A stretch of 35,018 nucleotides of DNA from Candidatus Hydrogenedentota bacterium (lineage in GTDB: Bacteria > Hydrogenedentota > Hydrogenedentia > Hydrogenedentales > JAEUWI01). The stretch is taken from NCBI GenBank assembly GCA_016182605.1, contig JACPGE010000010.1:1-35018 (forward strand), given 5' to 3'. The notes beneath the pieces were generated by a model. It searched no databases and was not told where the DNA came from. It was given only the letters and a program-made list of their open reading frames with translations. Below, in pieces: positions 3,611-24,424 of the stretch (its first letter is position 1; the number at the start of each line of letters is the position of its first letter). Made by a program: the position numbers and the translations under genes.

Positions 3611-5092
3611 ATGACGACTGTTCGCTGCCGTATTGCCCCGTCCCCCTCGGGGTTCTTGCATATCGGTACTGCCAAGATCGCCCTCTTTAACTGGCTCTAC
3701 GCCCGGAAGACAGGCGGAAAATTCGTGTTGCGCCTGGAAGATACGGACGCGGAACGCACGGAGGAGGAATTCGTCCAGGCGATGTGCGCCGGGTTCAAGT
3801 GGCTGGGCATCGAATGGGACGAGGGGCCCGAGTTTGGCGATGAACCGGAGCGCGGCCCCTTTGCGCCGTATCGCCAGTCGGAGCGCAAGGCCCTCCACCA
3901 GGAGGCCTGCCGGAAGCTGCTGGCGTCGGGCCACGCCTACCGCTGCTATTGCGGCAAGGAGGAGCTTGAAGCGGAGAAGGAACAGGCGCGCGCGGAGGGG
4001 CGGAACCCCCATTACAGCAGGAAGTGCCGCGATCTGACGCCGGAGCAGATCGCCGCGAAGGGCGATGCGCCGTTTGCCGTGCGTTTCCGGGTGCCGGAGG
4101 GCTTCACCGAGGTCCACGATGTGGTCCAGGGGGTGGTCCGCATGGAGAACACCCAGATCGACGACTTCGTTATCCAGAAATCGAATGGGGACCCGATTTT
4201 TCATTTGGCGGTGGTGGTGGACGATGGCGAGATGCAGATCACCCATGTGATCCGGGGGGACGACCACCTCACGAACGCCGCGAAGCACGTGCTGCTCTTT
4301 AACGGCTTGGGCTACGCCCTGCCGGTCTTTGCCCACCTGCCCATGGTGCTCGACGAGAGCGGCAAGAAATACAGCAAGCGCCTCCACGGGGCGAACGTGC
4401 TCGACTGGCGCGACGATGGCTATCTGCCCGAGGCGCTGATCAACTATGTGGCCCTGCTCGGCTGGACCCCGGAAGAGGAGGGCCGCGAACTCTTTACGCT
4501 GACGGAATTGATCGCGGCCTTCGACCCGCGCCGCTGGGGCAAATCCGCGGCGCGCTTCGACCTGAAGAAGCTGCAGTGGCTCAACGGCCAGCACATCCGC
4601 AATCTTTCGCTGGAGGCGTTGCTTGAGCGGCTGCTGCCGCGCCTGCGCCAGGCGGGTTGCAACGTGGACAGCCGGCCCACGGAATGGCTCCTGAAGATGA
4701 CCGCCCTGTGCCGGGAAAAACTCACCACCCTGAACGACATCGTGGAGGTGGCCGGCTTCTTCTTCTCCGAGTCCGCCGTGTACGACGAAAAAGGGGTGAA
4801 GAAACAATGGGGCGCTCCGGAGAGTCTGACCTATTTGACCGTCATGAGTGAATTGCTTTGGAACGCCACCTCGTGGGAGGTGGGGCCGCTGCACCAGCTA
4901 TTCGAGGACAAGGCCGCGGAACTGGGCATCTCCATTGGGAAACTGATGCCCTCGCTGCGCTTGGCCCTCACGGGAAAGACCGGCGGCCCCGATCTCTTCG
5001 CGGCGCTGGTGCTGCTGGGCCGGGACTCGTGTCTGCGCCGTATTGAGAACGCCAAGATTCACATTCAATCGATTCGGGAGAACATTGCATGA
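3611..5092 (+). CDS. gltX: Glutamyl-tRNA synthetase
   Basis: This 493-aa class I aminoacyl-tRNA synthetase charges tRNA-Glu in the cytoplasm. The HIGH-type motif is HIGT at 17-20 and the KMSKS-type motif is KYSKR at 253-257, as in bacterial GluRS. A C-x-C pair near residue 115 (RCYCG) begins the position where many GluRS enzymes bind zinc. The C-terminal third is the helical anticodon-binding region. The ATG at 3611 was chosen because AGGAG lies 6-7 nt upstream and the family N-terminus starts there; an upstream in-frame ATG at 3593 lacks such a site. Its stop overlaps the start of the next gene (ATGA), so the two are translationally coupled. Whether it also charges tRNA-Gln cannot be told from sequence. 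Confidence 0.96.
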   Translation: MTTVRCRIAPSPSGFLHIGTAKIALFNWLYARKTGGKFVLRLEDTDAERTEEEFVQAMCAGFKWLGIEWDEGPEFGDEPERGPFAPYRQSERKALHQEACRKLLASGHAYRCYCGKEELEAEKEQARAEGRNPHYSRKCRDLTPEQIAAKGDAPFAVRFRVPEGFTEVHDVVQGVVRMENTQIDDFVIQKSNGDPIFHLAVVVDDGEMQITHVIRGDDHLTNAAKHVLLFNGLGYALPVFAHLPMVLDESGKKYSKRLHGANVLDWRDDGYLPEALINYVALLGWTPEEEGRELFTLTELIAAFDPRRWGKSAARFDLKKLQWLNGQHIRNLSLEALLERLLPRLRQAGCNVDSRPTEWLLKMTALCREKLTTLNDIVEVAGFFFSESAVYDEKGVKKQWGAPESLTYLTVMSELLWNATSWEVGPLHQLFEDKAAELGISIGKLMPSLRLALTGKTGGPDLFAALVLLGRDSCLRRIENAKIHIQSIRENIA

Positions 5093-6063
5093 GTTCCTAT
5101 ATCGTTGGGGTCGACGTCGGGGGGACCTTTATCAAGACTGCGATCGTCTCGTGGGACAAGCGCGTCATTGGCAAGTCGTCGTGCCCGACCCACGCCCAGG
5201 AAGGCCCCCAGGCCGTGATGGACGCGATGGAGGGCGGCGTGCGCGATCTCGTGGCCCAGAACAAGATTTCCATGAGCGAAGTGATGGCCGTCGGCATTGG
5301 CGCGCCGGGCCCCATGAATTGGAAGACCGGCGTGGTCTACAGTCCGCCGAATCTCGCGGGCTGGAAAGACGTTCCCCTGGGCACGGAGATGCAGAAGCGC
5401 CTCAATGTGCCCTGTTTCATCGACAACGACGCCAACGCCGCCTGCTATGGCGAATTCTGGCTCGGCGCGGGCCAGGGCGCGGAGAATATGGCCGTGCTCA
5501 CGCTGGGCACCGGCGTGGGCGGCGGACTCATCGTCTTCGGCCTCCTGCTGCGCGGGGAAGACGGCACCGCCGCCGAACTCGGCCACCTGAAGGTGCAGCG
5601 CGACGGCCGCCTCTGCGGCTGCGGATCGCGCGGCTGCCTGGAGGGCTACGCCTCGGTCACCGGCATGGTGCGCACCGCCATCGAAGCGCTGGAGAGCGGC
5701 CGCTCCTCGCTCATCCACGACTTGTGCCAGGGCGACCACGCGCGCATCACCGGCAAGATGATTTTCGAGGCGGCGCAGGAAGAAGACGAAGTGGCGCTGT
5801 GGACCTTCGAAGAGACCGCCACCTGGCTCGGCCTCGGCATTGCCAGCATCATCAACTTTCAGAACCCCGAGAAAATCGTGCTCTGCGGCGGCATGATCGA
5901 CGCCGGTGAAATGCTTTTCGAACCGGTCCGGCGCGTCGCCAAGGCCAATGCCTTCCAGGTGCCCGCCGAACGCTGCAAGATTGTGCCCGCAGGGCTCGGC
6001 GCCGACTCCGGCGTGCTGGGCGCCGCGGGCTGTGCCCTGGCCCGCTACGAAGCCGCGAACTAA
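5089..6063 (+). CDS. ROK-family sugar kinase (glucokinase-like)
   Basis: This 324-aa cytoplasmic kinase would phosphorylate glucose or a related hexose or N-acetyl sugar with ATP. The phosphate-binding motif DVGGT is at 9-13. The catalytic Asp is Asp114 in DNDANAA. The ROK zinc site is complete: His166 (GHLKV) and Cys176, Cys178 and Cys183 in CGCGSRGCLE. The start overlaps the gltX stop by 4 bp. A second sugar kinase follows 24 bp downstream. No DNA-binding domain precedes the kinase, so it is an enzyme rather than an XylR/NagC-type repressor. The exact sugar cannot be assigned. Confidence 0.9.
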   Translation: MSSYIVGVDVGGTFIKTAIVSWDKRVIGKSSCPTHAQEGPQAVMDAMEGGVRDLVAQNKISMSEVMAVGIGAPGPMNWKTGVVYSPPNLAGWKDVPLGTEMQKRLNVPCFIDNDANAACYGEFWLGAGQGAENMAVLTLGTGVGGGLIVFGLLLRGEDGTAAELGHLKVQRDGRLCGCGSRGCLEGYASVTGMVRTAIEALESGRSSLIHDLCQGDHARITGKMIFEAAQEEDEVALWTFEETATWLGLGIASIINFQNPEKIVLCGGMIDAGEMLFEPVRRVAKANAFQVPAERCKIVPAGLGADSGVLGAAGCALARYEAAN

Positions 6064-6087
6064 AACCGCGGACAGGATGCACGCCGC

Positions 6088-7023
6088 ATGATCGTGACGC
6101 TGACGCCCAACCCGTGCGTGGACAAGACGCTCTATTTGGAGACGTTGCGCCTGGGAGAGAAGCACCGTGGTCTGCGCGCGAGTGCCGTCGCCGGCGGCAA
6201 AGGGTGTAACGTCTCCCGGGCCCTCAAGTCGCTCGGCTATGAGACCCGCGCCCTGGTCATCGTGGGCGGCCCCACGGGCCGGCACGTGGTACAGATGATC
6301 GAAGAGGAGGATCGGGTGCCCTGCACGCCCATCTGGGTCCAGGGCATGACCCGCACCATCACCACAATTCTGGAAGCATCCGTCCACCGGCAGACGCCCC
6401 TCTTTGAAGACGGCCCGGCAGTCAACCCGGCGGAAAAAAGCGCCGTGCTCGCCGCCTTTCGGCAGGCGGTGCAGGGCGCGCGCGTGGTCACCCTCAATGG
6501 CGCCGTGACCAGTCCCGAAACCCTCACCGATCTTTATGCGCAGTGCATCCCCATTGCACGCGAGGCTGGAGCCAAGGTCATCCTCGACTCCTATGGCCCG
6601 GAGTTCGCCGCGGGCCTCGCCGCACGCCCTAACGTCATCAAACCCAACCTCGAAGAAGCGGCCGCCCTGATGGGCCGCTCCCTCTACGGCGTCAGCGCCC
6701 GGCGCGACGCACTCCGCTACTTTCTGGATCAGGGCGTCGATGCCGTGGTCCTCTCCATGGGAGCCGAAGGCCTGCTCTTCGCCGACGGCATCCGCTCATG
6801 GCAGATCACGCCCCCAGTGATAAACGAGGTCAACCCGGTGGGATCCGGCGACGCCCTCGTGGCGGGCCTCGCCATTGGCCTGGCCGAAGACTGGGAATGG
6901 GATCGCAGCCTTCGCTTCGGCATAGGCGCCGGCGCCGCCAACGCCATGACTTGGGACATTGGCCATTTCGAAGTGGGCGAGGTCAAGCGTCTCGGCGCAC
7001 GGATGGTCATCCGGGATTTTTAG
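6088..7023 (+). CDS. PfkB-family sugar kinase (1-phosphofructokinase/tagatose-6-phosphate kinase type)
   Basis: This 311-aa kinase belongs to the FruK/LacC branch of the ribokinase superfamily. The N-terminus LTPNPCVDKT is typical of that branch, GGKGCNVSRAL (36-46) is the substrate-side signature, and GSGDA at 252-256 carries the catalytic Asp255 and the anion hole. It probably phosphorylates a hexose phosphate such as fructose-1-phosphate or tagatose-6-phosphate. It is the last gene of the gltX-ROK-PfkB operon. A PTS fructose transporter, the usual partner of fruK, is absent from the window, so the FruK assignment is uncertain. Confidence 0.88.
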   Translation: MIVTLTPNPCVDKTLYLETLRLGEKHRGLRASAVAGGKGCNVSRALKSLGYETRALVIVGGPTGRHVVQMIEEEDRVPCTPIWVQGMTRTITTILEASVHRQTPLFEDGPAVNPAEKSAVLAAFRQAVQGARVVTLNGAVTSPETLTDLYAQCIPIAREAGAKVILDSYGPEFAAGLAARPNVIKPNLEEAAALMGRSLYGVSARRDALRYFLDQGVDAVVLSMGAEGLLFADGIRSWQITPPVINEVNPVGSGDALVAGLAIGLAEDWEWDRSLRFGIGAGAANAMTWDIGHFEVGEVKRLGARMVIRDF

Positions 7024-7032
7024 GCCGGAAAT

Positions 7033-7048
7033 TTTCCCGCGGGGGAAA
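7033..7048 (+). terminator. Weak hairpin after the kinase operon
   Basis: TTTCCC and GGGAAA form a 6-bp stem around a GCGG loop, 9 bp after the PfkB stop. No U-run follows on the plus strand, so termination efficiency is doubtful. The stronger hairpin at 7097-7120 may also stop this transcript. Confidence 0.4.
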
Positions 7049-7096
7049 TCAACCGGGAACCCGCGCCACGGCTTTCAGCGGGGCTTACTGAAGAAA

Positions 7097-7120
7097 TCAG
7101 GCTCCCGCGGGGGAGCCTGA
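7097..7120 (-). terminator. Terminator of the three-lipoprotein operon
   Basis: TCAGGCTCCC and GGGAGCCTGA form a perfect 10-bp stem around a GCGG tetraloop. Read leftwards it is followed by TTTCTT, so it acts mainly as the intrinsic terminator of the VWA/LRR operon, 26 bp after its last stop codon. It lies between two converging operons and may work in both directions. Confidence 0.8.
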
Positions 7121-7146
7121 CTTGGGGTTTGAATGGGGGAGGGAAC

Positions 7147-10100
7147 TCAGGGACCGCCACCGTTTGCCTGCACCGTGATTGCCGCGGACTGACCTTCGGT
7201 CGAACTCGTGATGTTCAGTGTGGTCTGATTGATGCCCTCAGGGAGGGCGCTCCGGAACAAGCGCACAAAGAAGGTATCGCTCTGGTTGGGGCCAAGGCTA
7301 CCCGCGAAACGGTCGAGACTCAACCACTGTGGCAAGAGTCCCGGCTCTATCGCCCAGATCAGTTCGCTCTGCCCCGTGTTGGTAATCGTCAGCTGCAGAT
7401 CGCTAATGGTCGACTGGAAGTCAAGAAAGTTCGTGCTGACTAGCAAGACGGGCGGCGCCACTTCGAAACGCAGGACGATTCCCTCGCCTTCCGTTTCCAG
7501 GCCGAGCGATCCAAAGGTATACGTGAAGTTGAATATTCCCTCGTACTGGCCCGGCGGCAAACTCCGGTTCACCGGGATGGAGATGACCGTGGGATCGCGC
7601 GTGCCGGTCACGAAGCCTTCCTGGGGCTGCACGAAGCGCGAATCGGTCACGATGGCATCGATGGTGCCGATGTTCAGCACAAACGCAAGACCCACATCTA
7701 CAAGCGGATCGCCCGGCTCGAAGCCCGGACGCACGTGGCTTCCGCCCAGATTCAGCAATTCGAGCTGCAAGGTATCGATGCCGGTTCCCAAGTCGAATAC
7801 CACCGGGTCTGTCGAAGCGGGGAGGGGGATGGAGCCGGCACCGATAAAGGGTGCCGGGAACGAGGGCGCCAGGAACGGCGTCTCATCGGTTACCAGAAGG
7901 CTGTCTGGATAGGTGAAGTAGTGGGAGTTGAAGCTGGCGGAATGCACAGGCTCGTTCACTTGGAAGTTCACAAAGAACGGCAGGTCGTAGTCCGTGATCG
8001 TGATGCGCATCAGCTCGCCGAAATCGCCATAGGTGAGCGGGGTGCCGGTGGGGGAGGAGGCGGTGAATTGCACGCCACTCTGGACGAAATCCCAGTCGCC
8101 AATGAGGCCGCCCTGCGAATTCGGTACCGCCGCGACCGCGAAGTCAGGCGTAATATCCCCGAAAATACCGGCCTCCGGCGTGATTTCGAAAACGAAGCGG
8201 TTGATGTTGCGCGGTATGTAGTCCGCGTGCACCACGATGGTATAGCTGCCATCCGGGTTCAGGCCGAGGTTGCGCAGGGAAATCTGCCCCAGGCGCACGT
8301 CGCCCGCGATGGACTCGAAGTCAAGCTGGGTTTGCTCGTACTCGCCATTGATGCTTCCCTGCTCTTCAAGGCAGGTGGAATTCGAATCGTTTGGATCGTT
8401 GAAGGAGAGCTTGCCGTTTACCTTGATGTTGCGCGCTTCTTTGAGGGTCACGTAACTCAAGATCACTTGGGACGCCAAATCCTTGGGCACCGACTGGTCG
8501 CAGGTGTCGTCTTCCAGAGTCTGGCACCAATCGGCCAATTCGGCGAAGACGGGCTCCCGGACGGGCGCGCCGAAAGGATCGATCTCGCCGGTTGGGCGGT
8601 TGCGCGTTGCGTAGAAGTGTCCGCCCGAGGCCGCGGACAGGCGCACCAGCGGATCGCTGGCCACCTTCTCGCCCCAGCCCACGGCCATGAAACGCACAAA
8701 GCTGTTCCGGAGCGCGTCCTGCGCATCCGTGATGTTCCCCGGCGGCGTCGTGAGGCGGCCGTCCGTGACGCACACCAAGGCGCGCACATCCGCATCGTCA
8801 AAGGGAATATAATTGAATTGGCTGTCTTCATTGTCCAGCAAATCCGCCGCGCTGATTACCGCGGGCAGCAATTGGGTCGCACCGTGGTCCAGAACATTGA
8901 TTGCGTTGAGGCGCGCGAGCAGAACGTCCTTGTCAGTGGTAAACGTGTCGGGACTGCCTTCGCCCGTGATGGCGCGCACGGGACTTGCTTCGCTGCCAAA
9001 GGTGCGCTCATTGAAGACCGCCAGAGCCACGCGGTAGTTGGGATCCAAATCCGCGATCATTTCGCTCACCGTGGTTTCGTAGAGGGTCTGCAGGGCATCG
9101 TTGCCATCGACCTGGGGGAGTTCCCCGTTGTCTTCCAGCACCTGCGCCGCGGCGAGCATACTGCCGGAATAGTCGAGCAGGATAAGCGCGTTGGTCCGCA
9201 GGCGGTTGCCCTGTTTGAGGAACTGCGAGGTTTCCTCGACCGCAAGCGGGTCGTCGTTCTCCGCAATATCGAACAAGCCGCCGACGGCGCTCACCTGCGA
9301 ATCTGGAATCGGCAGCACCTGACTCTTGATATTGCGCAGGAGGAGCACCGATCGGACCTGAGAGGGGATCCTGAGACGGGGGAGGGCGGTTTCGATCGTA
9401 AGTTCGGGCGCTTCGACGCTCACGTTGACCTCAACGGGCACCACATCCGGATCGGGGATGCGTTGTCCCGATAGCGGGTCGGTGATGAAAGCCGTAATGA
9501 CGAGCTTGGCCGCCGCGCCGGCGCCGTCCAGTTGGGAGCGGTCCACCGTGACGCTGATGGGCTGGAAGTCGAGGATGATTCCCGGGGGCACGCCGATGCT
9601 GGAACCGGTTTCGGGGAAGACCGAAAGCCATTCCTTGCTGGAAGTGACCTGGAAATCCAGTTTCGTGCCGGTGTCGCCACTGTTGGCGATGCCCAGTGTT
9701 TGCGAGATGGAAGTGATGCTGAAGGCCATTGCCGATGGCGCGGTGGCTATCGAGATCTCGGGCTCCACCAGGATCTCCACTCGAAGAAGAAGGAGTTGCT
9801 GATCCGGCGCATTGGACGTGATGGTCAAATCGGCTTGCGCCCCACCCACGGAGAGGGAATCGCGGCTGACGGTAATCTTGATCGACTGTTGGCGGCCCGG
9901 ATCGAGGCTGTCCTGCGTGGGCGTAATGGAAGTAATCCAGGCCGGCAATTGGGCGGGGTCTATCATCCAGTTCAGGGTGCCATTGCCCGTGTTCCGGATC
10001 ACGAAAGTCACTTCGGTCAGGTCGGAGTCGAGATTGACAAAGGGCACGCCGAAATCGTCGATACCCTGGGCGATCAGTTCCATCACCGGCACCCGGGGAA

Positions 10101-11742
10101 TCGCCGCGGTTACCGTCACAGAGACGGGGGGCAGGGGAAGGGGCTCGAGGGGAAGTTCTTGAGGAATGGAGCCTGCGACACTAAAGGTGTGGGAGAGGTT
10201 GAACTGTCCCGCGGGCGCATTGGCGCGATCGACCACTATCGTGATCAAATCGGTATTCTGCGTGACCGTGCCGGAAAGCACGGGCCCCGTGGCTTCTTCA
10301 ATGGTGAGCCAGGCAGGGAATCCGGCCAAGGCAATGGACCAGTCGATCGTACCGATACCTTTGTTAAATACTGCCACAGTCTCGCGGGTTCCCGCGGTTC
10401 CAAAATCCACGTTGCGCGGAACCACGCTCAGGCCGGCGGGTTCCGGGCGCTCCATCGTCACCACGATGGTTTCGCTGCCCGTGGCGTAGGCGACACTTAC
10501 ATTGCTCTCGTAGACGCCGGGATCGACCGCAAGAGGATTCGCAGTGAAGGTTATCACCACGGTGTTGTTGAGCGTGCCCGCGGTTACATCCGTCCGAAGC
10601 CATTGCTGATCGAAGGCGGGGATGGATACGGTGAAATCGATCGGCAACACGCCCACGTTGGTAATGGTCAACGGGTGCGTCGTTTCCTGGGAGATGATAC
10701 CGAAGTCAATGGTGTTTGTGCTGACTTCGAGCGGCGGCACTTCGATTACCGACATACGGGCCGGCACAACGACCGAGAAATCGATCGAGGGCATGAACAC
10801 GAACAAGTCGCCCGTGTAGTTACCCACCGCCAAGCCGTCGGGCTCGGCCGTCAAATTCACGCTCCGCGATTCTCCCGGATCCAGGCTGAAGCTGGGTGGG
10901 GATGCCTGGAACCACGAGGTTGGATCATTGCTTGTGGGAAGTATTTCCAGGTCAATAGCTTCGGCAGTGATATTGGTTATGGTTATACTGCTTTCAGCCG
11001 TGTCCGTTATGCCGCCAAAATCGATCGATTGCGACGAAACGCTGAAGGGCGATATGACTGTGTCCAACAGAAGCACGTAGTCGCCGCCATTGGAAGTGAT
11101 TAGAAGTTCCGTCAGGGGGGTGCCGATCGGCAGCCCTGTGCGATTTATCGTCACAGCGACCTGCTGTGTAGCGCCAAGCTGCGTCAAAGTGCCCGACGCG
11201 GGAGAGACCGTGATCCACGGTGTGGAGTCCGGTACGTCGACGGCCCAGTTCAGGGTTTCGTCCCCGTTATTGGTGATTTGGAAGGTTTGGCGGGTTGTTG
11301 TGGCGTCAAAACTCAAGAGCCCGGGGAAAACATTCAGTTCCGCGGCAAGCGACTGACTCACGCTGACGTTGGTTGACTGGTTTCCGCCGTTGGAGGTAAA
11401 GGAGACCGTCCCCGTGGTGACCCGGCCTGCGGGAAGCTGGGTACGATCAATCTCTAGCGTAATGAACTGCACGCCCGTTTCAAGGTTTCCACTCAGCTCG
11501 GTACCCTGTTTTCCCAGTTCAGGGATGGACAGCGTCAACCAGGGCGCATCTTCCACTGACGCTTCCCAATCCAGGACGCCACTGCCGGTGTTTTCAATGC
11601 GGATATTCTTCACGCTCTCCGACGGGCTGAAGTCGACCGCAAGGGGACTGACCAGGAGGGTGGGGGGGAGCACAATACATCCGCAAAATAGAGCGAGCAG
11701 AGCCATTACGGTGAGCGCCCGCGTCCAATGGGTCAAACGCAT
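7147..11742 (-). CDS. Giant VWA lipoprotein with ASH/BACON-like repeats (1531 aa)
   Basis: Residues 1-21 are a lipoprotein-type signal (ALLALFCGC). About seven ~100-aa beta-sandwich repeats follow, each built on the pattern sxxxDFG...ITNxGxxxLxWxV...WLxVxPxxG, resembling ASH (ASPM-SPD2-Hydin) and BACON domains. A von Willebrand A domain begins near 850, with the MIDAS sequence DYSGS at 857-861, a metal-binding Thr in GATQL and VTDG further on. A region containing DYIPRNINR (from Asp1174) is shared with the next gene. The C-terminus holds two more sandwich repeats. The start at 11742 has GAGGAG 8 nt upstream and opens the signal. An in-frame ATG at 11799 overlaps the upstream stop as ATGA and could be used for coupling. 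A surface adhesion or scaffold role is inferred. Confidence 0.85.
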   Translation of the reverse strand: MRLTHWTRALTVMALLALFCGCIVLPPTLLVSPLAVDFSPSESVKNIRIENTGSGVLDWEASVEDAPWLTLSIPELGKQGTELSGNLETGVQFITLEIDRTQLPAGRVTTGTVSFTSNGGNQSTNVSVSQSLAAELNVFPGLLSFDATTTRQTFQITNNGDETLNWAVDVPDSTPWITVSPASGTLTQLGATQQVAVTINRTGLPIGTPLTELLITSNGGDYVLLLDTVISPFSVSSQSIDFGGITDTAESSITITNITAEAIDLEILPTSNDPTSWFQASPPSFSLDPGESRSVNLTAEPDGLAVGNYTGDLFVFMPSIDFSVVVPARMSVIEVPPLEVSTNTIDFGIISQETTHPLTITNVGVLPIDFTVSIPAFDQQWLRTDVTAGTLNNTVVITFTANPLAVDPGVYESNVSVAYATGSETIVVTMERPEPAGLSVVPRNVDFGTAGTRETVAVFNKGIGTIDWSIALAGFPAWLTIEEATGPVLSGTVTQNTDLITIVVDRANAPAGQFNLSHTFSVAGSIPQELPLEPLPLPPVSVTVTAAIPRVPVMELIAQGIDDFGVPFVNLDSDLTEVTFVIRNTGNGTLNWMIDPAQLPAWITSITPTQDSLDPGRQQSIKITVSRDSLSVGGAQADLTITSNAPDQQLLLLRVEILVEPEISIATAPSAMAFSITSISQTLGIANSGDTGTKLDFQVTSSKEWLSVFPETGSSIGVPPGIILDFQPISVTVDRSQLDGAGAAAKLVITAFITDPLSGQRIPDPDVVPVEVNVSVEAPELTIETALPRLRIPSQVRSVLLLRNIKSQVLPIPDSQVSAVGGLFDIAENDDPLAVEETSQFLKQGNRLRTNALILLDYSGSMLAAAQVLEDNGELPQVDGNDALQTLYETTVSEMIADLDPNYRVALAVFNERTFGSEASPVRAITGEGSPDTFTTDKDVLLARLNAINVLDHGATQLLPAVISAADLLDNEDSQFNYIPFDDADVRALVCVTDGRLTTPPGNITDAQDALRNSFVRFMAVGWGEKVASDPLVRLSAASGGHFYATRNRPTGEIDPFGAPVREPVFAELADWCQTLEDDTCDQSVPKDLASQVILSYVTLKEARNIKVNGKLSFNDPNDSNSTCLEEQGSINGEYEQTQLDFESIAGDVRLGQISLRNLGLNPDGSYTIVVHADYIPRNINRFVFEITPEAGIFGDITPDFAVAAVPNSQGGLIGDWDFVQSGVQFTASSPTGTPLTYGDFGELMRITITDYDLPFFVNFQVNEPVHSASFNSHYFTYPDSLLVTDETPFLAPSFPAPFIGAGSIPLPASTDPVVFDLGTGIDTLQLELLNLGGSHVRPGFEPGDPLVDVGLAFVLNIGTIDAIVTDSRFVQPQEGFVTGTRDPTVISIPVNRSLPPGQYEGIFNFTYTFGSLGLETEGEGIVLRFEVAPPVLLVSTNFLDFQSTISDLQLTITNTGQSELIWAIEPGLLPQWLSLDRFAGSLGPNQSDTFFVRLFRSALPEGINQTTLNITSSTEGQSAAITVQANGGGP

Positions 11743-11795
11743 ACTGTACTCCTCATCCCTTGCCATCCATCGTGCCGCGAATCCTTTTCCCGTAC

Positions 11796-14700
11796 TCATG
11801 GCAGCACCACAATCAGCGTTACTGCAACTTCCTGAACCGGCTTGAATTCCAGGTCGGTCGTGAAGGTCAGAATGCCCGGGACATTGCGGGTCGGAATGCC
11901 GGTCCGGTCCACGGGGATGTTGAGCGTTTCACTTTCCCCGGGCGCCAAGCTACTGCGGGGCTCCGTTCGATTGCCGGCGCCATAGGTGATGCCGTCCTCG
12001 ACAATCCAAGTGGGAAGCTCATCCGTTTCCAGCGCCCACGTGAAGGTCTCGAGCCGGTTGTTGGTTATGGTCAGCGTGAAGCTGTTCCGGTTTGCCGCAA
12101 TTTCGAAGGGATTCGGCACGACAAAGGAATCCGGGAAATCGGGGTCATCCGGCGCGGGATCGTTGAAATCGGGGATGCCATCGCCTTCCTCGCCCACGCC
12201 ACTGTCCCGGTCCCATTCGAACTCGCGTTCTGGATTTATTCCAGGCGCCTGGAGCGTCACCAGATCGCGGGCAGGGGAGGCAATGTCCGAACGGCCCAAC
12301 TGGATGGAGAGGGGCCGGTCTGGATTCGTGCGTTCTCCGGGATAGAGGAAGTACTTCGAGTCCGACGGCTTCCCGCCACTCGCGGGCTCCACCAGCAGGG
12401 GGTTGTCCACACGCATGTACAGGAGAAACTCCGGATTCCGGCCGGCAAGGGCCGGGTCGTCGAAGAGCGCGACATAGTCTTGCAGATTCGAATAGGTTAT
12501 CTGCAACAGGCTGCCGAAGGAACCGAAGGGAAGGGGGTTCTCCTCATTGGTAACGAGAAAATAGACGCCATCGCTCTCCGGCACCAAGCGCCAGCCGCCT
12601 TGGGTTGCAAGGAGTCCGTCCGGCGCGATTTCTACTTGAACATTGGCTCCATCGAGTGCCGTCTGGAAGGATGCCGGCACGTCCTCGGGAAGGCCGGTGT
12701 AGAAGCGCACCCGCAAGCGGTTTACATTGCGTGGAATGTAATCGGTGTTCATAAAGACTTCGGCGCGGAAGCGTTGATCCGGGGCCGTCGTCCGCAAGTC
12801 CTCGATAATGCCCGTTGACTTCAGGGAAATCTGGCCGCCCAGAACATCACCGGGAAAGAAGACGCCATCGCGCATGAAAGGGCCTTCAATAACCTCGCCG
12901 TTGGGCTGGGTGTAACGGCCGATGATGGCGTATTCGAATTGCGTTTGTTTTGGCGTGATATAGGTCAAGACGATCTGATTCTGGAGTTCGCGCCAGAGCG
13001 TGCCCGGTTCGTCCCGCAGTGCAACCGAAATGTCCTCGGCTAACGAATTGTCGATGTTCGGCGTGAACTGTATTACGGCCGAGCCTGTGCCCGCGCCACT
13101 GGTAATGAGGATCTCGCCTTCGGTTCGTTCCAAGGCCGGGTAATCGGTCGGATCCAGATTCACGGTAATCGTCTGGCTGTTGCCCGGGCTCACATTGCCC
13201 GAACTGGGATTGATGCCGGTGACAAATTCCGTGTCGTTCCCCGCTCGCACATTGAAGGAGAAGGAGGAGGCGCCCATGTTGTGGATCTGAAAGCTCGCCG
13301 TGTTGGCGCCCGACATCGTGAGGCTGTCCAGAACCAGGCTCTTCTCGCCGCCAAGAATGGCGGTGAGGCCTTCCGCGGTGCCCGCGGTGTACAGGTGGCC
13401 GCCACTGTCGCGGGATACCGTGATCAGATCCGCAGTATTGACCGTTTCGCCGTTTGGGCTGTACGAAACAGGGTAGAGGCGCACGCGGGATTCTTCGGCG
13501 GTCGTCGTTACGTCGGAGAGGGTCGCCACGGACGCATTGTCTTCGCCGTCGGTCACATAGACAATGGCGCGCACATCGGCGTCGTCAAAGGGCAGGGTCT
13601 CGGGCGGATCTTCGGCCTCGAGGAGTTCCATCGTTTCAAGCAGGGCATCGTTGATATCCGAAGTGCCAAACTGGGCCTCGGGCAGCGTGAAGGCATCCAA
13701 GGCCGCCTTCAGGGATTCCCGATCGGTTGTGAATTGATGAATCACCCGGTTCGGCTGTTGAACGTTGTTGTAGAAAAGCAGAGCGACCCGGTAGCTGGGG
13801 GGGAGGTCGTCTATGAAGCGGCGTGTGGCCGCCTTCATAATGGAAACGGCCTCGCCGCGCTCCAGGCCATTCACGGGATCGGCCGTTCCCGCATTCAGCA
13901 TACTGCCGGTGTAATCCAGAAGGATGGCCAGGTTCACTTGCAGTTCATTCGTCAGAAACTGGTTCGTTTCGTTCAAGTCTAGCGCAACATCGTCTTCAAA
14001 AATTACAAACTGAAGTTTCTTGCGCTCTTCTTCGGTCTGCGTGGGCACAACCTGTCCCAGAGAATCCCGCACGAGGAATACGAAGCGCATGACATAGGGG
14101 GGGCGGCTCCGGTTCAGGGTGCCTTCCACCTGGAGCGGTTGGCGTTCCACGCGAATGACAAGTTCGGCGGGTTCCACAGCCGCCTGGGCCGTGGAGAAGG
14201 AACTGTCGAAGGCGGTCACGGTGAGGGTCCGGAGTTCGACGTCTTCGCGCAGATTGTTGCGGTTGATGGTTACCGTGATCGGTACGCCATCGATAGGCGT
14301 GTTGTTTTCCTCACTGAAAAAGTCCGAATCGGGACCATTTGTGTTGCCCTGCACGGGCGCCACGGCCGCGATCACCGGGTTGGCCGCGCGCTCATCTTCA
14401 TGGGTGATCTTGAAGAACAGGAGGGAATCCGTCGGACCGGTATTGGCCACGTAAAAGGTCAGTTGGGTTTCTTCCCGTCCAAAGTCCAGGGTTTCAATCG
14501 GTGTCACGCGTGGAGGAAAAACCTCCGTGCTCGGCGGCGAGGATATCGCGATGATGGGCACGGGAAGGACGTCGACCACGATCGGAACGATGATAAAGGC
14601 GCCTTCCGAACGGACAATCAATTGGTAGTTATTGCTGCCCTTCAGAATGTTCTCGGGATCGGTGACCTTGGCCTTGATCGCGTCCGTTTCGTTGGGGGCC

Positions 14701-15626
14701 AGCGAGCCAAACGATGATGACAGACTGATGGGCACCGACTGTGCGGCGTTGTCCAGGTTCACCAGTTCGAGGGTGTAGAGATGGCCGCCGCCGCTCATAT
14801 GGCGGATATTCAGCGTTGCTTCTGGCTGGGGCAGGGGATCGCCCTCATCGTTCTGGCCTTCCACAAGATGCAACAACAAGGTAGACGGAGTGACGCTCAG
14901 AAAATTCAGGGGCGATCCTATGCTAAAAGTCACCAGAGCCGTGCCGATGGAGGATTCCACCAAGAGGCCGAAATCGTCTCCGCCCGGAGGGAGGGTCACA
15001 TTCACGGTCGTGGATTCGCCTGTGGCGGTCGTTCCAAGCGCTGGCGAAAGCGTGATGTTGGAAGGGACTGCGCTCACCTGACCCGGTTGAGAAAGATTCG
15101 CCACAAAATTTATGGCCCAGTTGATTGCGAGCGGACTGCCATTGAAAATCTGAAAACGGGCTGTGGTATCGGTGGCCGAGAGGGAGATGGCCGAAGGCGT
15201 TACAGTCAGTTGGTTCTGTACTTCCATTGAGATCGGCACTACGACCGTGCCGCCATTCGAGGTGATGCGCACGCCGGAATTTACATAGATCCCGACGGCC
15301 TGACCGGTGCGTGAAGCCACCAAGCCGATATGGTCCACTTCCTTGCTGGTGGTGCCGAGCGTTGCGCTAAGGCTCAACCAGGGCACATCGCCCGCCACCC
15401 AATCGGCATCTTCGCTGGCCCGTACTACCTCTTGCGCTGTCCACTGAAGACTCGTCTGACCCAGGTTCGTGATAACCAGTGCGCGATTGATGCCATCGGT
15501 GCTGAAGTCGATCGATCCGGGGGAAACCAGGAGTTGGGGGGGGAGGCTCTGCGGGCAGCCCGTGAGCAGGCCTGCCAGAAGGGGCAGCACCATGAGTATT
15601 TGCAGGCGTAGTCTCGTTAGAGCCAT
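11796..15626 (-). CDS. Giant VWA lipoprotein with ASH/BACON-like repeats, paralogue (1276 aa)
   Basis: The N-terminus has a clear lipobox, LLTGC, then beta-sandwich repeats of the same type as the downstream gene. The VWA domain carries the MIDAS sequence DYTGS at 571-575, the metal-binding Thr in FGTSD and VTDGEDN. Between the VWA domain and the shared DYIPRNVNR motif (from Asp962) there is an extra sandwich repeat of about 75-90 residues that the paralogue lacks. A C-terminal sandwich repeat ends the protein. Asp/Pro-rich spacers such as DDPDFPDS occur near 1160-1180. The ATG at 15626 has GAGGTAG about 7 nt upstream and begins the signal peptide; an in-frame extension to 15689 has no such features. 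It is the middle gene of the operon. Confidence 0.85.
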   Translation of the reverse strand: MALTRLRLQILMVLPLLAGLLTGCPQSLPPQLLVSPGSIDFSTDGINRALVITNLGQTSLQWTAQEVVRASEDADWVAGDVPWLSLSATLGTTSKEVDHIGLVASRTGQAVGIYVNSGVRITSNGGTVVVPISMEVQNQLTVTPSAISLSATDTTARFQIFNGSPLAINWAINFVANLSQPGQVSAVPSNITLSPALGTTATGESTTVNVTLPPGGDDFGLLVESSIGTALVTFSIGSPLNFLSVTPSTLLLHLVEGQNDEGDPLPQPEATLNIRHMSGGGHLYTLELVNLDNAAQSVPISLSSSFGSLAPNETDAIKAKVTDPENILKGSNNYQLIVRSEGAFIIVPIVVDVLPVPIIAISSPPSTEVFPPRVTPIETLDFGREETQLTFYVANTGPTDSLLFFKITHEDERAANPVIAAVAPVQGNTNGPDSDFFSEENNTPIDGVPITVTINRNNLREDVELRTLTVTAFDSSFSTAQAAVEPAELVIRVERQPLQVEGTLNRSRPPYVMRFVFLVRDSLGQVVPTQTEEERKKLQFVIFEDDVALDLNETNQFLTNELQVNLAILLDYTGSMLNAGTADPVNGLERGEAVSIMKAATRRFIDDLPPSYRVALLFYNNVQQPNRVIHQFTTDRESLKAALDAFTLPEAQFGTSDINDALLETMELLEAEDPPETLPFDDADVRAIVYVTDGEDNASVATLSDVTTTAEESRVRLYPVSYSPNGETVNTADLITVSRDSGGHLYTAGTAEGLTAILGGEKSLVLDSLTMSGANTASFQIHNMGASSFSFNVRAGNDTEFVTGINPSSGNVSPGNSQTITVNLDPTDYPALERTEGEILITSGAGTGSAVIQFTPNIDNSLAEDISVALRDEPGTLWRELQNQIVLTYITPKQTQFEYAIIGRYTQPNGEVIEGPFMRDGVFFPGDVLGGQISLKSTGIIEDLRTTAPDQRFRAEVFMNTDYIPRNVNRLRVRFYTGLPEDVPASFQTALDGANVQVEIAPDGLLATQGGWRLVPESDGVYFLVTNEENPLPFGSFGSLLQITYSNLQDYVALFDDPALAGRNPEFLLYMRVDNPLLVEPASGGKPSDSKYFLYPGERTNPDRPLSIQLGRSDIASPARDLVTLQAPGINPEREFEWDRDSGVGEEGDGIPDFNDPAPDDPDFPDSFVVPNPFEIAANRNSFTLTITNNRLETFTWALETDELPTWIVEDGITYGAGNRTEPRSSLAPGESETLNIPVDRTGIPTRNVPGILTFTTDLEFKPVQEVAVTLIVVLP

Positions 15627-15737: not shown

Positions 15738-16352
15738 TCAGTTCGCGCCGGTATCCGGCTCGGAAAAAATCAACACCACGCCGGCATCCAGCAGCGCCTG
15801 GTAATCTTCAAACCAATAGTCCAGCACGTTGCCTTCTTCGTCAAGTGTCGTCTTCACGGGAAGATTCAATATGTCGCCGTCACCCAGGCCGCCCGCCCGC
15901 GAATTCGCCGCCAATGGAGACCAATTGATGATTTCGTTGCCGTCGCCAAACAAGATGACTTCTTCAAGGAAGAACAGCCCGGCCAGGGCTTCGATGTTCG
16001 TCACCTCGTTGTCGCCCAAATCGAGCCGGCGTAAATTCACCAGGCCTTCCAGCGGTGTGATGCTCTGCACCAGGTTGGTGCGCAAATCCAGGGTTTGCAG
16101 AAAGCGGCAATACTGCAGGCCTTCGAGATTGCGGATATTCAGCGCCGAAGCCTGAATCTCACGGGCGTCCAGCAGGTCGTCCCGGGTCAACAGGCCCAAT
16201 GGCTTGCCGATGGAGGCGCGAACGGCCGATTCCAGGGCGGCATCGGGAAAATAGACGATACCACTGAAAATAGACGGACACCCGCTTAATCCTGCCAGCG
16301 CGGCTCCGGTTACACAGACCAATGCGAATGTTCGCCACATGTTGCTCTTCAT
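15738..16352 (-). CDS. Small leucine-rich-repeat lipoprotein
   Basis: This 204-aa protein starts with a lipoprotein signal ending LAGLSGC. Residues ~60-140 hold about four 22-residue leucine-rich repeats of the internalin type (LQTLDLRTNLVQSITPLEGL, then LRRLDLGDNEVTNIEAL). The C-terminal 60 residues carry no recognised domain. The ATG at 16352 has AGAGGTGG upstream and opens the signal; an upstream in-frame extension to 16400 does not. It is the first gene after the promoter at 16449-16477 and lies 111 bp before the first giant VWA gene, with no terminator between. LRR proteins bind other proteins, so it may be a partner of the VWA proteins; this is inference. Confidence 0.8.
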   Translation of the reverse strand: MKSNMWRTFALVCVTGAALAGLSGCPSIFSGIVYFPDAALESAVRASIGKPLGLLTRDDLLDAREIQASALNIRNLEGLQYCRFLQTLDLRTNLVQSITPLEGLVNLRRLDLGDNEVTNIEALAGLFFLEEVILFGDGNEIINWSPLAANSRAGGLGDGDILNLPVKTTLDEEGNVLDYWFEDYQALLDAGVVLIFSEPDTGAN

Positions 16353-16448
16353 GCGAACCACCTCTTTCCAAGGACACGATGCAACCGAGCGCCGGTCCAT
16401 GCCCTATCCGCCTGAGAAAGGGTTGGCCGACGACTGTTTTCAGGTTTA

Positions 16449-19715: not shown

Positions 19716-21134
19716 CTACGCGATCAGGTCGTGCATCACATTGCCGTAGACGTCCGTCAGGCGGTAGTCCCGGCCCGAATAGCGGTAGGTCAATTCGGTG
19801 TGGTTGATGCCCAGCAGGTGCAGGATGGTGGCGTGGAGATCGTGCACGTGCACCTTGTTCTCCACGGCGTGCCAGCCATACTCGTCCGTGTTGCCGTAGG
19901 TGAGACCGCCCTTCGTGCCGCCGCCCGCCATCCACATCGTGAACCCGAAGGGATGGTGCTCCCGGCCGTTGTCGCCCTCGGCCGTCGGCGTGCGGCCAAA
20001 CTCGCCGCCCCACAAGACGATGGTCTCGTCGAGCAGCCCGCGCGCCTTCAGATCCTTCAGCAGACCCGCAATGGGCTTGTCCGTCGCGGCGCAGTTCAGC
20101 GGCAGTTCCTGTTTCAGGCCGCCGTGCTGATCCCAGAGCTGGCAGCTCGATCGTTTGGCGGTCTGTGTGTGGTAAACCTGCACACAGCGCACGCCGCGCT
20201 CCACCAGACGCCGCGCCATAAGACACTGCTTCCCGAAGATCGCGGTGGACTCTTCGTTCAGTCCATACAAGTTCTGGGTGGCTGCGGATTCCCCGGCCAC
20301 ATCGAAGGCCTCCGGCGCCTCGGTCTGCATGCGGTAGGCCAGTTCAAACGAGGCGATTCGCGCGCTCAGGCGGGAGTCCTCTTCCCGTGCCGCCGCGTAT
20401 TCCTGGTTGACCGCGGCGAGGAGGTCCAGTTGCTTCCGCTGCATCGCGCCGGAATAGCGCGGGTTGGCCAGGTTGGCAATGGGCGCGTCCAGGTTGGAGA
20501 CGAGCGTGCCCTGATAGGCTGCGGGCAGGAAACTCGATCCCCACAGTGGCGCGCCCTGGGCCGGCTGCGCCGGACTCAGCACCACGAAGCCGGGCAGGTT
20601 CTGGTTCATGGTGCCCAGGCCATAGAGCAGCCACGAGCCCAGGCTGGGCCGCGAGAAACTCTGCTCGCCCGTGTTCATCTGGAGGCAGGCGCCGTTGTGG
20701 TTGATGTTGTCCGCCACCATGGAGCGGATCATGCAGAGGTCGTCCGCGCAGGTCGAAAGGTGTGGGAGCAGTTCGCTGAATTCCATGCCCGATTCCCCGT
20801 GGCGGGAGAACGTCCAGGGCGATCCGAGCAAGTTGCCGGTCTTGGTGCGTTCCAGCTTGGGCTTCTCGAAGGGCAGGGGCTTGCCCATCTCCGCCAGGAG
20901 GCGCGGCTTCGGGTCGAAGAGGTCCACATGAGAAGGGCCGCCAGACATGAAGAGGAAAATGAGGTTCTTGGCTTTGGGCGGAATGTGGGCAGCGCGCACG
21001 GCGAGGGGATTCTGCGTCGCGGCCAGGGCTCCGGATTGTTGCAGGACCGTGGCCAGACCCAGCATGCCAAAGCCATTGGCGAACTGCTTCAGCGCCTGGC
21101 GCCGGGAGTAACGGGGGGGATGATTGCTGTCCAC
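19716..21134 (-). CDS. Tat-exported DUF1501 protein (sulfatase-like fold)
   Basis: This 472-aa protein belongs to the DUF1501 family, which shares the alkaline phosphatase/sulfatase fold and is abundant in Planctomycetes. The N-terminus has a twin-arginine signal, YSRRQALKQF, followed by a hydrophobic stretch. Family motifs include MSGGPSHVDLFDPKP near 65-80, GGEFGRTP, HHPFGFTMWMAGGG and the C-terminal GRDYRLTDVYGNVM. The GTG at 21134 was chosen because GAGGAG lies 6 nt before it; an in-frame TTG at 21149 would put that site inside the gene. It starts 11 bp after the PSD1 cytochrome gene ends, the standard pairing. The enzymatic activity of the family is not established. Confidence 0.92.
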   Translation of the reverse strand: MDSNHPPRYSRRQALKQFANGFGMLGLATVLQQSGALAATQNPLAVRAAHIPPKAKNLIFLFMSGGPSHVDLFDPKPRLLAEMGKPLPFEKPKLERTKTGNLLGSPWTFSRHGESGMEFSELLPHLSTCADDLCMIRSMVADNINHNGACLQMNTGEQSFSRPSLGSWLLYGLGTMNQNLPGFVVLSPAQPAQGAPLWGSSFLPAAYQGTLVSNLDAPIANLANPRYSGAMQRKQLDLLAAVNQEYAAAREEDSRLSARIASFELAYRMQTEAPEAFDVAGESAATQNLYGLNEESTAIFGKQCLMARRLVERGVRCVQVYHTQTAKRSSCQLWDQHGGLKQELPLNCAATDKPIAGLLKDLKARGLLDETIVLWGGEFGRTPTAEGDNGREHHPFGFTMWMAGGGTKGGLTYGNTDEYGWHAVENKVHVHDLHATILHLLGINHTELTYRYSGRDYRLTDVYGNVMHDLIA

Positions 21135-21145
21135 GGTGGGGCTCC

Positions 21146-24100
21146 TCAATCGACGAAGACGAATTCGTTGGCGTTCAACAGGACCTGCGCGTAAGCCGTC
21201 ACCCCTTCGGGAGCGGGGTAGCCCAGTGCGGGCAGGGCCTCCCGCGTCAGGGTGATTTCGCCGGGGGACGGGGCACGCATATATATACGTCCATACAACG
21301 CGTTGGCCAGGCCCTCGGCATCGGCCGCGGCAGGCGCCATAGCCGACGCCAGGCGCTCCGATTCGCTCAGCATAAAGGGATGGTTCATGAGAAACAAGGC
21401 CTGGGGGGAGACGGTCGTCTCCAGACGCTTCGGAATGATGGAGGTGGGGTCGGCCGCGTCAAACAGCATGGGGTAGGTGCTCCGATCGGATCGCACCGTG
21501 CGCAGGTAGAGCGTGCGGCGGGGTGTGTCCAGTTCCTTGAAGGCTGGCCCGCCCGCCGTGAGATCGAGGCGTCCAGAAACGGCCAACAGACTGTCGCGCA
21601 GGGCTTCGGCTTCGAGGCGCTTGCGGTTCATCCGCGCCAGCAACAGGTTCTCGGGATCCTGTTGCAGCGACTGCGCGTTGCCGCGCGAATCCTGTTGCCA
21701 CGCCGCCGTGTTCAGAATCAGGCGGTGCATCTCTTTCATCGACCAGCCCGACGCCATGAAGCGCCGCGCAAGATAGTCCAGCAATTCGGGGTGGGTGGGG
21801 GCTTCGCCCTGCTTGCCGAAGTCGCCCGGTGTGCGCACGAGTCCCTGCCCGAAGTGGTGCTGCCAGATACGGTTCACCATGACACGCGCCGTGAGCACAT
21901 TATCGGACGACGCCAGCCAGTTGGCCAGTTCAACACGGCCACTGCCGCCGGTGATGGGGGCCTGTTCCGCGCCCGCCAGGATCAGCGGCATGCGGCGCGG
22001 CACCAGATCGCCCAGATTGTTGTAGTCGCCCCGGCGGTGCACACGCACATCCTGCACACCCACATAGCCCGTGTTCGGCACCGGCCCCTCCTGAATGCCC
22101 ACGGCGTAGTCGAGCGGGGGGAAGGGCTGGGCTTCCAGTTGCGCCACTTCGGTGTCGATCTCCTGAAGCCGTCCCGGTGCAGTCGGAGGTGTTGCGATCC
22201 AGAAGGGCCCGGTCTCGCCGAGGAGCTGGGCCGTGATCGCGCTGCCGGCCGCCTCCGGATGGGCCAGGGCCGCGTCCACCAAAGATTGAATCGCAGCGGC
22301 GGCCTCAGTGAGGACGTCCTCGCCGCGCGCACCGCTGGAGACTGCTTTAGAGGCGCTCCACCACGGCGAGAAGAGCACCGGATCGGCCGTCAGGCCTTCG
22401 GTGCCATCGAGCAGCCACCATACTGCGGGGTGGCCTTGCGCGTCGGGCAGGGGATTGCTTTCCGTGAAGTGGGGGACCACCTCCTGGGAAATGTTCCACG
22501 TGGAGCCGGAAGTAGCTTGTATAGTGATGTCGATCACCGTGCTGTCGCAACTGTGATCGCCCTTCGGCGCGATGGTTAGGAGCAGGCTGTCGCCCTCCTG
22601 CACGGTGAGGGGCGCTTCGGAGGCGAAGGGGGCCGACGCGCCATTGTCCACAGCGCCTGATAATACCGATTGAAGGACTCCGCCGGTGAGATATTCGACG
22701 CGCCACTCCACCCCGTCGCCACAGGTGCCGTCCGCATCGGCGATCCGCCCCGTGATCTGAATGGTGTCCGCAACGGGACTCTGCCACTCCACGCGCACCG
22801 GCACACCGGGCGCCGGATGGACCACGAGAGACTGGGCGGGCTGGGTGATGCTCAGGTACTTAAGTTCATTGGTGGTCGCGTTTGCGACGGACGAGGGGAG
22901 CGGCGCTTCGGTGCGGCGCGCATTCAATCCCGCGTTACCGGCGACGTCGCGATCGATGACGTTCAGCGTACGATACGCGCCCGGACTCACGTAGCGCTTC
23001 CAGCGCTCGACCGATTCCGCGTTCAGTTCCGGACCGGCAGGCGCGCCCTGCCGCGACGCGAGCAGATAGGCGCCGGTCTTGGCCGCTTCCTGACGCGCCC
23101 ACGCCGTGCGCGACTCTTTTATCAGACCCTCGCGCTCGCCACGCAACGCAGCAAGGCGAGTTTCACGCTCCGCACGCGCCGCCAACTCCTCCTTCGATGC
23201 GATGGGCAGATGCAGAATGGGGGAGCCCTCGGTCTTCGCGCCGGGCCCCGGCAGGATCGAGCTGCTGAAGAAGATCCCCGCGAGCCCGTAGTAGTCCTCT
23301 TTCACGAACGGATCGAACTTGTGATCGTGACACCGCGCGCAGGCCATGGTGGAACTCAGGAAACCGCGCGTCACCATGTCGATCTGATCGTCCACGATAT
23401 CCGCCACCATCTTCTCCTTGTCCGCGTCGCCCTGGGGCCAGTTGCCGATGGCGAGCATCCCCGTGGCGATGAGACCGTCCCGGTTGAAGCCGCCGTCCGG
23501 CCCGGGCAGGAGATCGCCCGCAATCTGGTAGCGCACGAACTGATCGTAGGGCATGTCCGCGTTGAAGGCGTTCACCACCCAGTCGCGGTAGCGCCAAATC
23601 TCCACGGGGTCCGTCGCGGCCGTCGCGCGCGAGTCGAAGGAATCGGTATAGCGCACCACGTCGAGCCAGTGCCGCGCCCAGCGCTCCCCATATTGCGGCG
23701 TGGCCAGCAGCCGCTCCACCTCCTCGGCGAAGGCACCGGGCGCTTCGTTCGCCACAAAGGCCGCCACCGCCTCCGGGGTGGGCGGCAGCCCGGTAAGATC
23801 ATAGGTCAGCCGGCGCAGGAGCGTCCGCCGATCCGCGGGGGACGCAGGGGAGAGTCCCGCAGCCTCGATCTTCGCGAGGACGAAGTAATCCACCTCGTTC
23901 CGGGGCCAAGCCGCCTGCTGCACGGCGGGCACCTCGGGATTCGCCAGCAACTGATACGACCAATGGGCTGACGCCGGCACGGCTACAGGAGCCGTTGGCG
24001 CTTCCGGGTAGACTGGCCAGGGCGCGCCCTGGGTCACCCACGCCGTCAGGACGTCAATCTCCGCCTGCGGCAATTTGCCTGGGGGCGGCATCTGGGGTTT

Positions 24101-24406
24101 GCCTTCATAGCCGATGACGGTAAGCAGCAGGTTCTCCCCGCCGACGAGAGGCCCCCGCGAACCGCCCTTCTGGAAGGTGGCCGCATTGTCCAGGCGCAGT
24201 TCCGACTTCTGGGTCTCCGCGCCGTGGCATTCGAAACAGCGCGCCGCCAGAATGGGCCGCACCTTCTGCTCAAAGAAGAAGGCCGGGTCTGGAGGCGGCG
24301 TTTCGGCTCGCGCCAGGGGCGCCAGGCACGCCAGCGAAACGAGGGTCCAGGCCGCAAAGCGGCTGCGGCGTGAAAAGGGGCTATAGTTGGCGGTGTCGTT
24401 TTGCAT
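21146..24406 (-). CDS. PSD1-family cytochrome c protein (DUF1549/DUF1553)
   Basis: This 1086-aa secreted protein has a signal peptide (~14-35) and an N-terminal planctomycete-type cytochrome c domain with CFECH at 57-61. A DUF1549 domain follows (DYFVLAKIEAAGL, RHWLDVVRYTDSF) and includes the conserved CARCHDHKFDP. A central beta-sandwich region (~480-640) may bind carbohydrate. DUF1553 forms the C-terminal part (VMVNRIWQHHFGQGLVRTPG). With the downstream DUF1501 gene it makes the two-gene unit found in many copies in Planctomycetes and linked by genomics to polysaccharide breakdown. The ATG at 24406 has no ribosome binding site, but TATAAT ends 7 bp upstream of it, so the mRNA may be leaderless. 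Confidence 0.92.
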   Translation of the reverse strand: MQNDTANYSPFSRRSRFAAWTLVSLACLAPLARAETPPPDPAFFFEQKVRPILAARCFECHGAETQKSELRLDNAATFQKGGSRGPLVGGENLLLTVIGYEGKPQMPPPGKLPQAEIDVLTAWVTQGAPWPVYPEAPTAPVAVPASAHWSYQLLANPEVPAVQQAAWPRNEVDYFVLAKIEAAGLSPASPADRRTLLRRLTYDLTGLPPTPEAVAAFVANEAPGAFAEEVERLLATPQYGERWARHWLDVVRYTDSFDSRATAATDPVEIWRYRDWVVNAFNADMPYDQFVRYQIAGDLLPGPDGGFNRDGLIATGMLAIGNWPQGDADKEKMVADIVDDQIDMVTRGFLSSTMACARCHDHKFDPFVKEDYYGLAGIFFSSSILPGPGAKTEGSPILHLPIASKEELAARAERETRLAALRGEREGLIKESRTAWARQEAAKTGAYLLASRQGAPAGPELNAESVERWKRYVSPGAYRTLNVIDRDVAGNAGLNARRTEAPLPSSVANATTNELKYLSITQPAQSLVVHPAPGVPVRVEWQSPVADTIQITGRIADADGTCGDGVEWRVEYLTGGVLQSVLSGAVDNGASAPFASEAPLTVQEGDSLLLTIAPKGDHSCDSTVIDITIQATSGSTWNISQEVVPHFTESNPLPDAQGHPAVWWLLDGTEGLTADPVLFSPWWSASKAVSSGARGEDVLTEAAAAIQSLVDAALAHPEAAGSAITAQLLGETGPFWIATPPTAPGRLQEIDTEVAQLEAQPFPPLDYAVGIQEGPVPNTGYVGVQDVRVHRRGDYNNLGDLVPRRMPLILAGAEQAPITGGSGRVELANWLASSDNVLTARVMVNRIWQHHFGQGLVRTPGDFGKQGEAPTHPELLDYLARRFMASGWSMKEMHRLILNTAAWQQDSRGNAQSLQQDPENLLLARMNRKRLEAEALRDSLLAVSGRLDLTAGGPAFKELDTPRRTLYLRTVRSDRSTYPMLFDAADPTSIIPKRLETTVSPQALFLMNHPFMLSESERLASAMAPAAADAEGLANALYGRIYMRAPSPGEITLTREALPALGYPAPEGVTAYAQVLLNANEFVFVD

Positions 24407-24412
24407 GTGCCG

Positions 24413-24418: not shown

Positions 24419-24424
24419 CAATGA

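What the first reader, a model, noticed from the sequence alone, without database searches (positions are those of the whole stretch)
7147..15626. Unassigned domain with a DYIPRNxNR motif after the VWA domain in both paralogues
Both giant proteins carry, 317 and 391 residues after the MIDAS Asp, a stretch containing GQISL, DYIPRN(I/V)NR and a downstream segment with FGxL(M/L)xIT and an F-x-Y-P element. It is conserved while the surrounding repeats have diverged, which implies a specific role tied to the VWA domain. I cannot place it in a known family.
Basis: partly seen in the sequence, partly recalled or inferred. Interest (0 to 1): 0.7.

Follow-up and report, generated by a model that had tools for sequence, protein, structure and literature searches.

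The report
Cohesin-like domain fused to VWA lipoproteins
Two neighbouring giant surface lipoproteins of a Hydrogenedentota bacterium share an undescribed ~130-residue domain that always follows the VWA (adhesion-type) domain and is predicted to fold like the cohesin docking modules of cellulosomes; it is near-universal in this poorly known phylum, but what it binds is unknown.

Summary
DYIPRN(I/V)NR lies 317 and 391 residues after the MIDAS Asp in two tandem lipoproteins (1550 and 1297 aa), inside a real domain. No Pfam, NCBIfam or PDB sequence profile matches it, and it is not an ASH/BACON repeat. In 103 of 104 collected proteins it follows a VWA domain; the exception is cut by a contig end. 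It occurs in 53 of 68 Candidatus Hydrogenedentota genomes and 5 of 132 of a second phylum, and was essentially absent elsewhere in the sample. The two window genes are sister clades from an old tandem duplication, in a conserved LRR-lipoprotein/VWA/VWA block; a compact third class lies elsewhere. AlphaFold2 (pLDDT 83) gives a beta-sandwich whose closest solved structures are cohesins (Foldseek E 1.5e-3, probability 1.00, target TM about 0.5-0.58). DYIPRN is the beta2-beta3 turn. Homology to cohesins is not detectable by sequence (hhalign probability <1%), so this is a cohesin-like fold, not a PF00963 member. Likely role: a docking or packing module coupled to a VWA head on an Ig-like stalk. 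A dockerin partner is unproven: the phylum's dockerin-like tails are missing from most genomes of one family that has the domain.

The parts
7885..8304 (-). New domain in the first protein (P0001 residues ~1166-1305), cohesin-like fold
   Evidence: Profile alignment, AlphaFold2 and Foldseek, natural boundary in homologues
8197..8223 (-). DYIPRNINR motif (P0001 1193-1201), end of beta2 and beta2-beta3 turn
   Evidence: Position; strand assignment
12327..12851 (-). New domain in the second protein (P0002 residues ~947-1121)
   Evidence: Profile alignment
12717..12743 (-). DYIPRNVNR motif (P0002 983-991)
8320..8490 (-). Closing hairpin of the VWA domain in P0001 (1104-1160)
   Evidence: G019 and G029 homologues end right after it
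12852..13001 (-). Equivalent hairpin in P0002 (897-946)
   Evidence: Alignment
8602..9207 (-). VWA domain of P0001 (~865-1066), intact MIDAS DYSGS
   Evidence: Invariant metal-site columns, Foldseek VWA matches
13380..13949 (-). VWA domain of P0002 (~581-770), intact MIDAS DYTGS
   Evidence: TIGR03436 match E 6.5e-9, below its cut-off; alignment with P0001
13104..13340 (-). Extra ASH-type repeat between VWA and domain in P0002 (784-862)
   Evidence: PF22544 over its cut-off
7147..11799 (-). P0001, 1550-aa lipoprotein with BACON/ASH repeats, VWA, new domain, further repeat
11796..15626 (-). P0002, lipoprotein with Ig-like repeats, VWA, ASH repeat, new domain; ATGA overlap with P0001
15738..16400 (-). 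LRR lipoprotein gene, conserved upstream of the pair
   Evidence: Pfam LRR; present in 21 of 23 loci

Best explanation
The conserved stretch is a ~130-residue domain (beginning GDVRxGQI) with a cohesin-like beta-sandwich fold, fused directly after the VWA domain and its closing hairpin (after an extra ASH repeat in P0002) in surface lipoproteins of Hydrogenedentota. DYIPRNxNR is the signature turn between strands 2 and 3; the other near-invariant residues (G, W, G) look structural. Shown by computation: the domain family, its boundary, its constant position after VWA, its distribution, the tandem duplication and the three-gene block. Predicted: the fold, and a defined packing of sandwich on VWA. 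Inferred: the two lipoproteins, with the LRR lipoprotein, form an envelope adhesion or scaffold complex in which the Ig-like repeats are the stalk, the MIDAS of the VWA binds a metal-dependent ligand, and the cohesin-like sandwich packs against the VWA and offers a protein-docking face, within the complex or for another exported protein.
For: AlphaFold2 of the domain, pLDDT 83; Foldseek: cohesins at ranks 1-6 and most of the top 25, probability mostly 0.94-1.00. Joint model of VWA plus domain pTM 0.85, pLDDT 85, consistent with a fixed arrangement. VWA metal-site strand upstream in 103 of 104. Tree: class 1 and class 2 sister clades (0.997), class 3 separate. Three-gene block in 21 of 23 loci. 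Class 3 keeps the domain although only 8 of 24 keep DxSxS, so the domain has a role that does not need the metal site.
Against: No sequence-level link to cohesins. Foldseek E-values only 1e-3 to 1e-2, TM normalised by query about 0.35-0.44. No PAE or coordinates were available, so the VWA-sandwich interface was not inspected. No partner identified; docking is inference.
Confidence: 0.5

Rival explanations
1. The sandwich has no partner of its own: it is a structural cap that stabilises the VWA head, and the cohesin resemblance reflects a common beta-sandwich fold.
For: Always next to VWA; high joint pTM; near-invariant residues look structural; no sequence link to cohesins.
Against: Two homologues keep the VWA and lose the whole sandwich cleanly; P0002-type proteins have an ASH repeat inserted between VWA and domain, so contact with the VWA cannot depend on direct linkage.
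Confidence: 0.35
2. The domain is a receptor for the dockerin-like EF-hand-pair tails carried by many exported Hydrogenedentota proteins.
For: Cohesin-like fold; tails in 41 of 68 genomes, at least 74 copies in four of them; association with the domain 39/14 against 2/13, Fisher p 4e-5, not corrected for phylogeny.
Against: Family f5 genomes such as G010, G033, G024 and G036 have the domain and no tail; the association follows families; canonical PF00963 cohesins in 58 of 68 genomes are better candidate partners.
Confidence: 0.08
3. A carbohydrate-binding module or adhesin-type sandwich rather than a protein-docking one.
For: A CBM2, a CBM3-like module and adhesin sandwiches are among weaker Foldseek matches.
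Against: Cohesins rank above them with higher probability; the alignment shows no conserved exposed aromatic patch that I could recognise, one Trp being near-invariant (surface exposure not tested).
Confidence: 0.08
4. It is a diverged ASH/BACON repeat.
For: It sits among such repeats and is all beta.
Against: No ASH/BACON match in the domain although repeats around it match; hhalign probability 0.2-1.1%; cohesins rather than ASH structures are nearest.
Confidence: 0.02

Closest known systems
Cohesin domain (PF00963), including non-cellulosomal cohesins of C. perfringens (2jh2, 2vo8) and Archaeoglobus (2xdh)
   Same: Predicted beta-sandwich with cohesins as nearest solved structures; exported multidomain proteins
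   Different: No profile or profile-profile match; always behind a VWA domain; no dockerin partner shown
TMEM132 family: cohesin homology domain next to tandem Ig-like domains, proposed adhesion molecules (PMC6030884)
   Same: Cohesin-type sandwich combined with Ig-like repeats on a surface protein, with no known dockerin partner
   Different: Eukaryotic, no VWA reported there; its cohesin link is supported by HHpred, here only by fold
Bacterial VWA surface proteins (TIGR03436-type; 4fx5, BatB 3ibs, pilus adhesin SpaC 6m3y among Foldseek matches)
   Same: VWA fold with MIDAS in exported proteins
   Different: P0002 scores below the TIGR03436 cut-off; the domain after the VWA matches no NCBIfam model

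Membership tests
Cohesin (PF00963) | Match to the family profile | tested here: not met
   No cohesin match for either window protein at E up to 1 or for any of 78 domain members
Cohesin (PF00963) | Profile-profile similarity to cohesins | tested here: not met
   hhalign probability 0.3, 0.9, 0.3%; positive control: the same phylum's cohesin profile finds PDB cohesins at 4e-16
Cohesin (PF00963) | Cohesin beta-sandwich fold | tested here: met
   Predicted model only; Foldseek top hits are cohesins, probability 1.00, target TM about 0.5-0.58
Cohesin (PF00963) | Binds a dockerin | not testable with these tools
   Needs a binding assay
Cohesin (PF00963) | Dockerin-like partner encoded in the same genomes | tested here: inconclusive
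   Dockerin-like tails in 41 of 68 genomes but absent in many that have the domain; PF00404 not surveyed
ASH/BACON repeat | Match to ASH, HYDIN or BACON profiles | tested here: not met
   Matches lie outside the domain in window proteins; hhalign 0.2-1.1%; among 78 members one weak Ig_CFAP65 match, E 0.23
VWA domain | VWA fold and DxSxS...T...D metal site upstream of the new domain | tested here: met
   Foldseek VWA matches; invariant metal-site columns in class 1; DYSGS and DYTGS in the window proteins. Pfam VWA models score below cut-off

The most novel reading that the evidence does not exclude
The VWA/cohesin-like lipoprotein pair is the phylum's surface receptor for exported proteins: a docking system separate from cellulosomes, in which a cohesin-like domain with no detectable sequence relation to cohesins recognises partner modules on many secreted proteins.
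Probability: 0.08. Interest if true: 0.75.

Novelty: new variant of a known kind. Interest (0 to 1): 0.42.

Why it matters
It defines a new domain family, near-universal in a poorly studied phylum (Hydrogenedentota) and always coupled to VWA, and gives it a fold and a testable role. If docking is confirmed it would extend the cohesin fold to envelope receptors that sequence searches cannot see.

Tried and rejected
Single-protein scan of genome contigs found no relatives; the 78-member alignment was too diverse for pattern search, a closer one worked. PDB sequence search with the domain profile: nothing credible. ASH/BACON origin rejected. Sequence homology to cohesin tested with broad and narrow profiles and not found. 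Dockerin-tail ligand idea tested by co-occurrence and weakened. hhalign run by script failed on input handling, so the compare tool was used. The whole genome was not available as a file. A position-based count of metal-site motifs in classes 1 and 2 picked wrong places because of variable spacing; the pattern count is used for them instead. Literature searches found no description of this domain in Hydrogenedentota in the held library; Peer et al. 2009 on non-cellulosomal cohesins is not held.

Full report
Check. MIDAS Asp to motif is exactly 317 and 391 residues. The second gene's likely start, ATG at 15626, is preceded by a GAGG-like site, and the two genes overlap as ATGA, so they are probably co-translated. 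Both begin with a signal peptide ending in a lipobox (FCGC, LTGC), read directly from the sequence.

Relatives. The domain of the second protein was found in 48 of 60 related genomes; titled loci show the host group to be Candidatus Hydrogenedentota. A 78-sequence alignment gave a profile that finds the domain in 53 of 68 genomes of the phylum, 34 of 38 among good-quality ones (the 53 include G019, where only the hairpin part matches). Outside, a sample of 318 further genomes gave one strong and one weak hit, and the strong one led to 5 of 132 genomes of a second phylum. A profile including those, run on 386 genomes around one of them, found the same five plus a Hydrogenedentota genome and nothing new. 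The name of the second phylum was not established.

Architecture. Of 104 collected proteins, 103 have the VWA metal-site strand upstream of the domain, as a rule 180-350 residues away; the other is truncated at a contig start. In the second phylum the whole protein is just lipobox, beta region, VWA and domain, sometimes with a C-terminal extension, so the BACON/ASH repeats are additions and the VWA-plus-domain unit is the core (inference). Hydrogenedentota have three classes. Class 2 (P0002-like) and class 1 (P0001-like) are adjacent genes and sister clades; class 3 is a shorter protein elsewhere in the genome (own copy L033:3653-5767). Class 3 keeps the domain, but only 8 of 24 keep the DxSxS metal motif.

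Boundary. In two genomes (G019, G029) the class-1 homologue stops right after the hairpin (YDLDLSSIAP*, EYLLDLSTISPVR*), and I saw no remnant of the sandwich in the translated frames that follow. So the LxxQxxLxYxTL hairpin goes with the VWA and the new domain starts at about GDVRxGQI.

Fold. AlphaFold2 on the domain with 41 sequences gives mean pLDDT 83, above 90 across most of the sandwich. Foldseek against the PDB puts cohesins at ranks 1-6 and through most of the top 25, mostly at probability 0.94-1.00, while other beta-sandwiches (adhesins, adaptins, nanobody) score lower. The strand order (GQISL; TIVVHADY; RFVFEI; then GG..W; then FGELMRITIT) agrees with that of cohesins (inference, from the strand list and general knowledge of cohesin topology). 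The motif covers the end of beta2 and the beta2-beta3 turn. E-values of 1e-3 to 1e-2 and query-normalised TM around 0.4 are moderate, so this is a fold-level statement.

Sequence membership. Profile-profile comparison with cohesins from the same phylum gives probability below 1%, about as low as with the ASH/BACON repeats; the cohesin profile itself finds solved cohesins easily. No Pfam or NCBIfam family matches more than a couple of members, none convincingly. It should not be filed as a cohesin.

Surroundings. An LRR lipoprotein gene lies directly upstream in 21 of 23 loci; no other neighbour is conserved to that degree. The window's other neighbours (ROK and PfkB kinases, tRNA synthetase, an ammonium transporter) are not part of the block.

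Mechanism. Best supported: a lipoprotein-anchored VWA head on an Ig-like stalk, with a cohesin-like sandwich in a defined arrangement with the VWA (pTM 0.85 for the pair). A docking role is inferred from the fold and from retention of the domain when the metal site is lost. The idea that it receives the phylum's dockerin-like C-terminal tails was tested: tails occur in 41 of 68 genomes and are very numerous in some, but most f5 genomes with the domain have none of these tails, so that reading is unlikely as a general rule.

Noticed in passing
L035:21-2591 (end); G000:C84:276-557, G000:C108:39942-40235; alignment A6: A C-terminal dockerin-like tail with two EF-hand-like loops (DxNxDWxIxLxELLRxIQ.YN), in 41 of 68 Hydrogenedentota genomes and at least 74 copies in each of G026, G021, G017 and G008. 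It matches Pfam EF-hand models only below their cut-offs; possibly a phylum-specific attachment or sorting module.
   Followed up: partly
G000:C103:24513-25136; L128, L133, L136, L141, L148: Canonical PF00963 cohesins are over cut-off in 58 of 68 Hydrogenedentota genomes, and in several proteins the cohesin is followed by the dockerin-like tail in the same polypeptide.
   Followed up: partly
window 15738-16400 (-): Small LRR lipoprotein conserved directly upstream of the tandem pair; role unknown.
   Followed up: partly
L033:3653-5767; L037:3296-4966 and 5004-7331: Third class of VWA-plus-domain lipoproteins, often with a degenerate MIDAS (DYSAL, DYSLY), sometimes as two adjacent genes.
   Followed up: partly
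L155 (G054:C448): A class-3-like protein continues after the domain into a sequence resembling a formylglycine-generating-enzyme (SUMF1-type) domain, by eye only.
   Followed up: no
window 19716-24421 (-): Planctomycete-type PSCyt1/PSCyt2/PSD1 protein (1091 aa) next to a second exported-type ORF of 477 aa.
   Followed up: no
L100 (JAACEL010000105.1): Contig titled Nitrospiraceae has the same length (12340) as contig C154 of G054, a genome of the window's order; the title is probably a misassignment.
   Followed up: no
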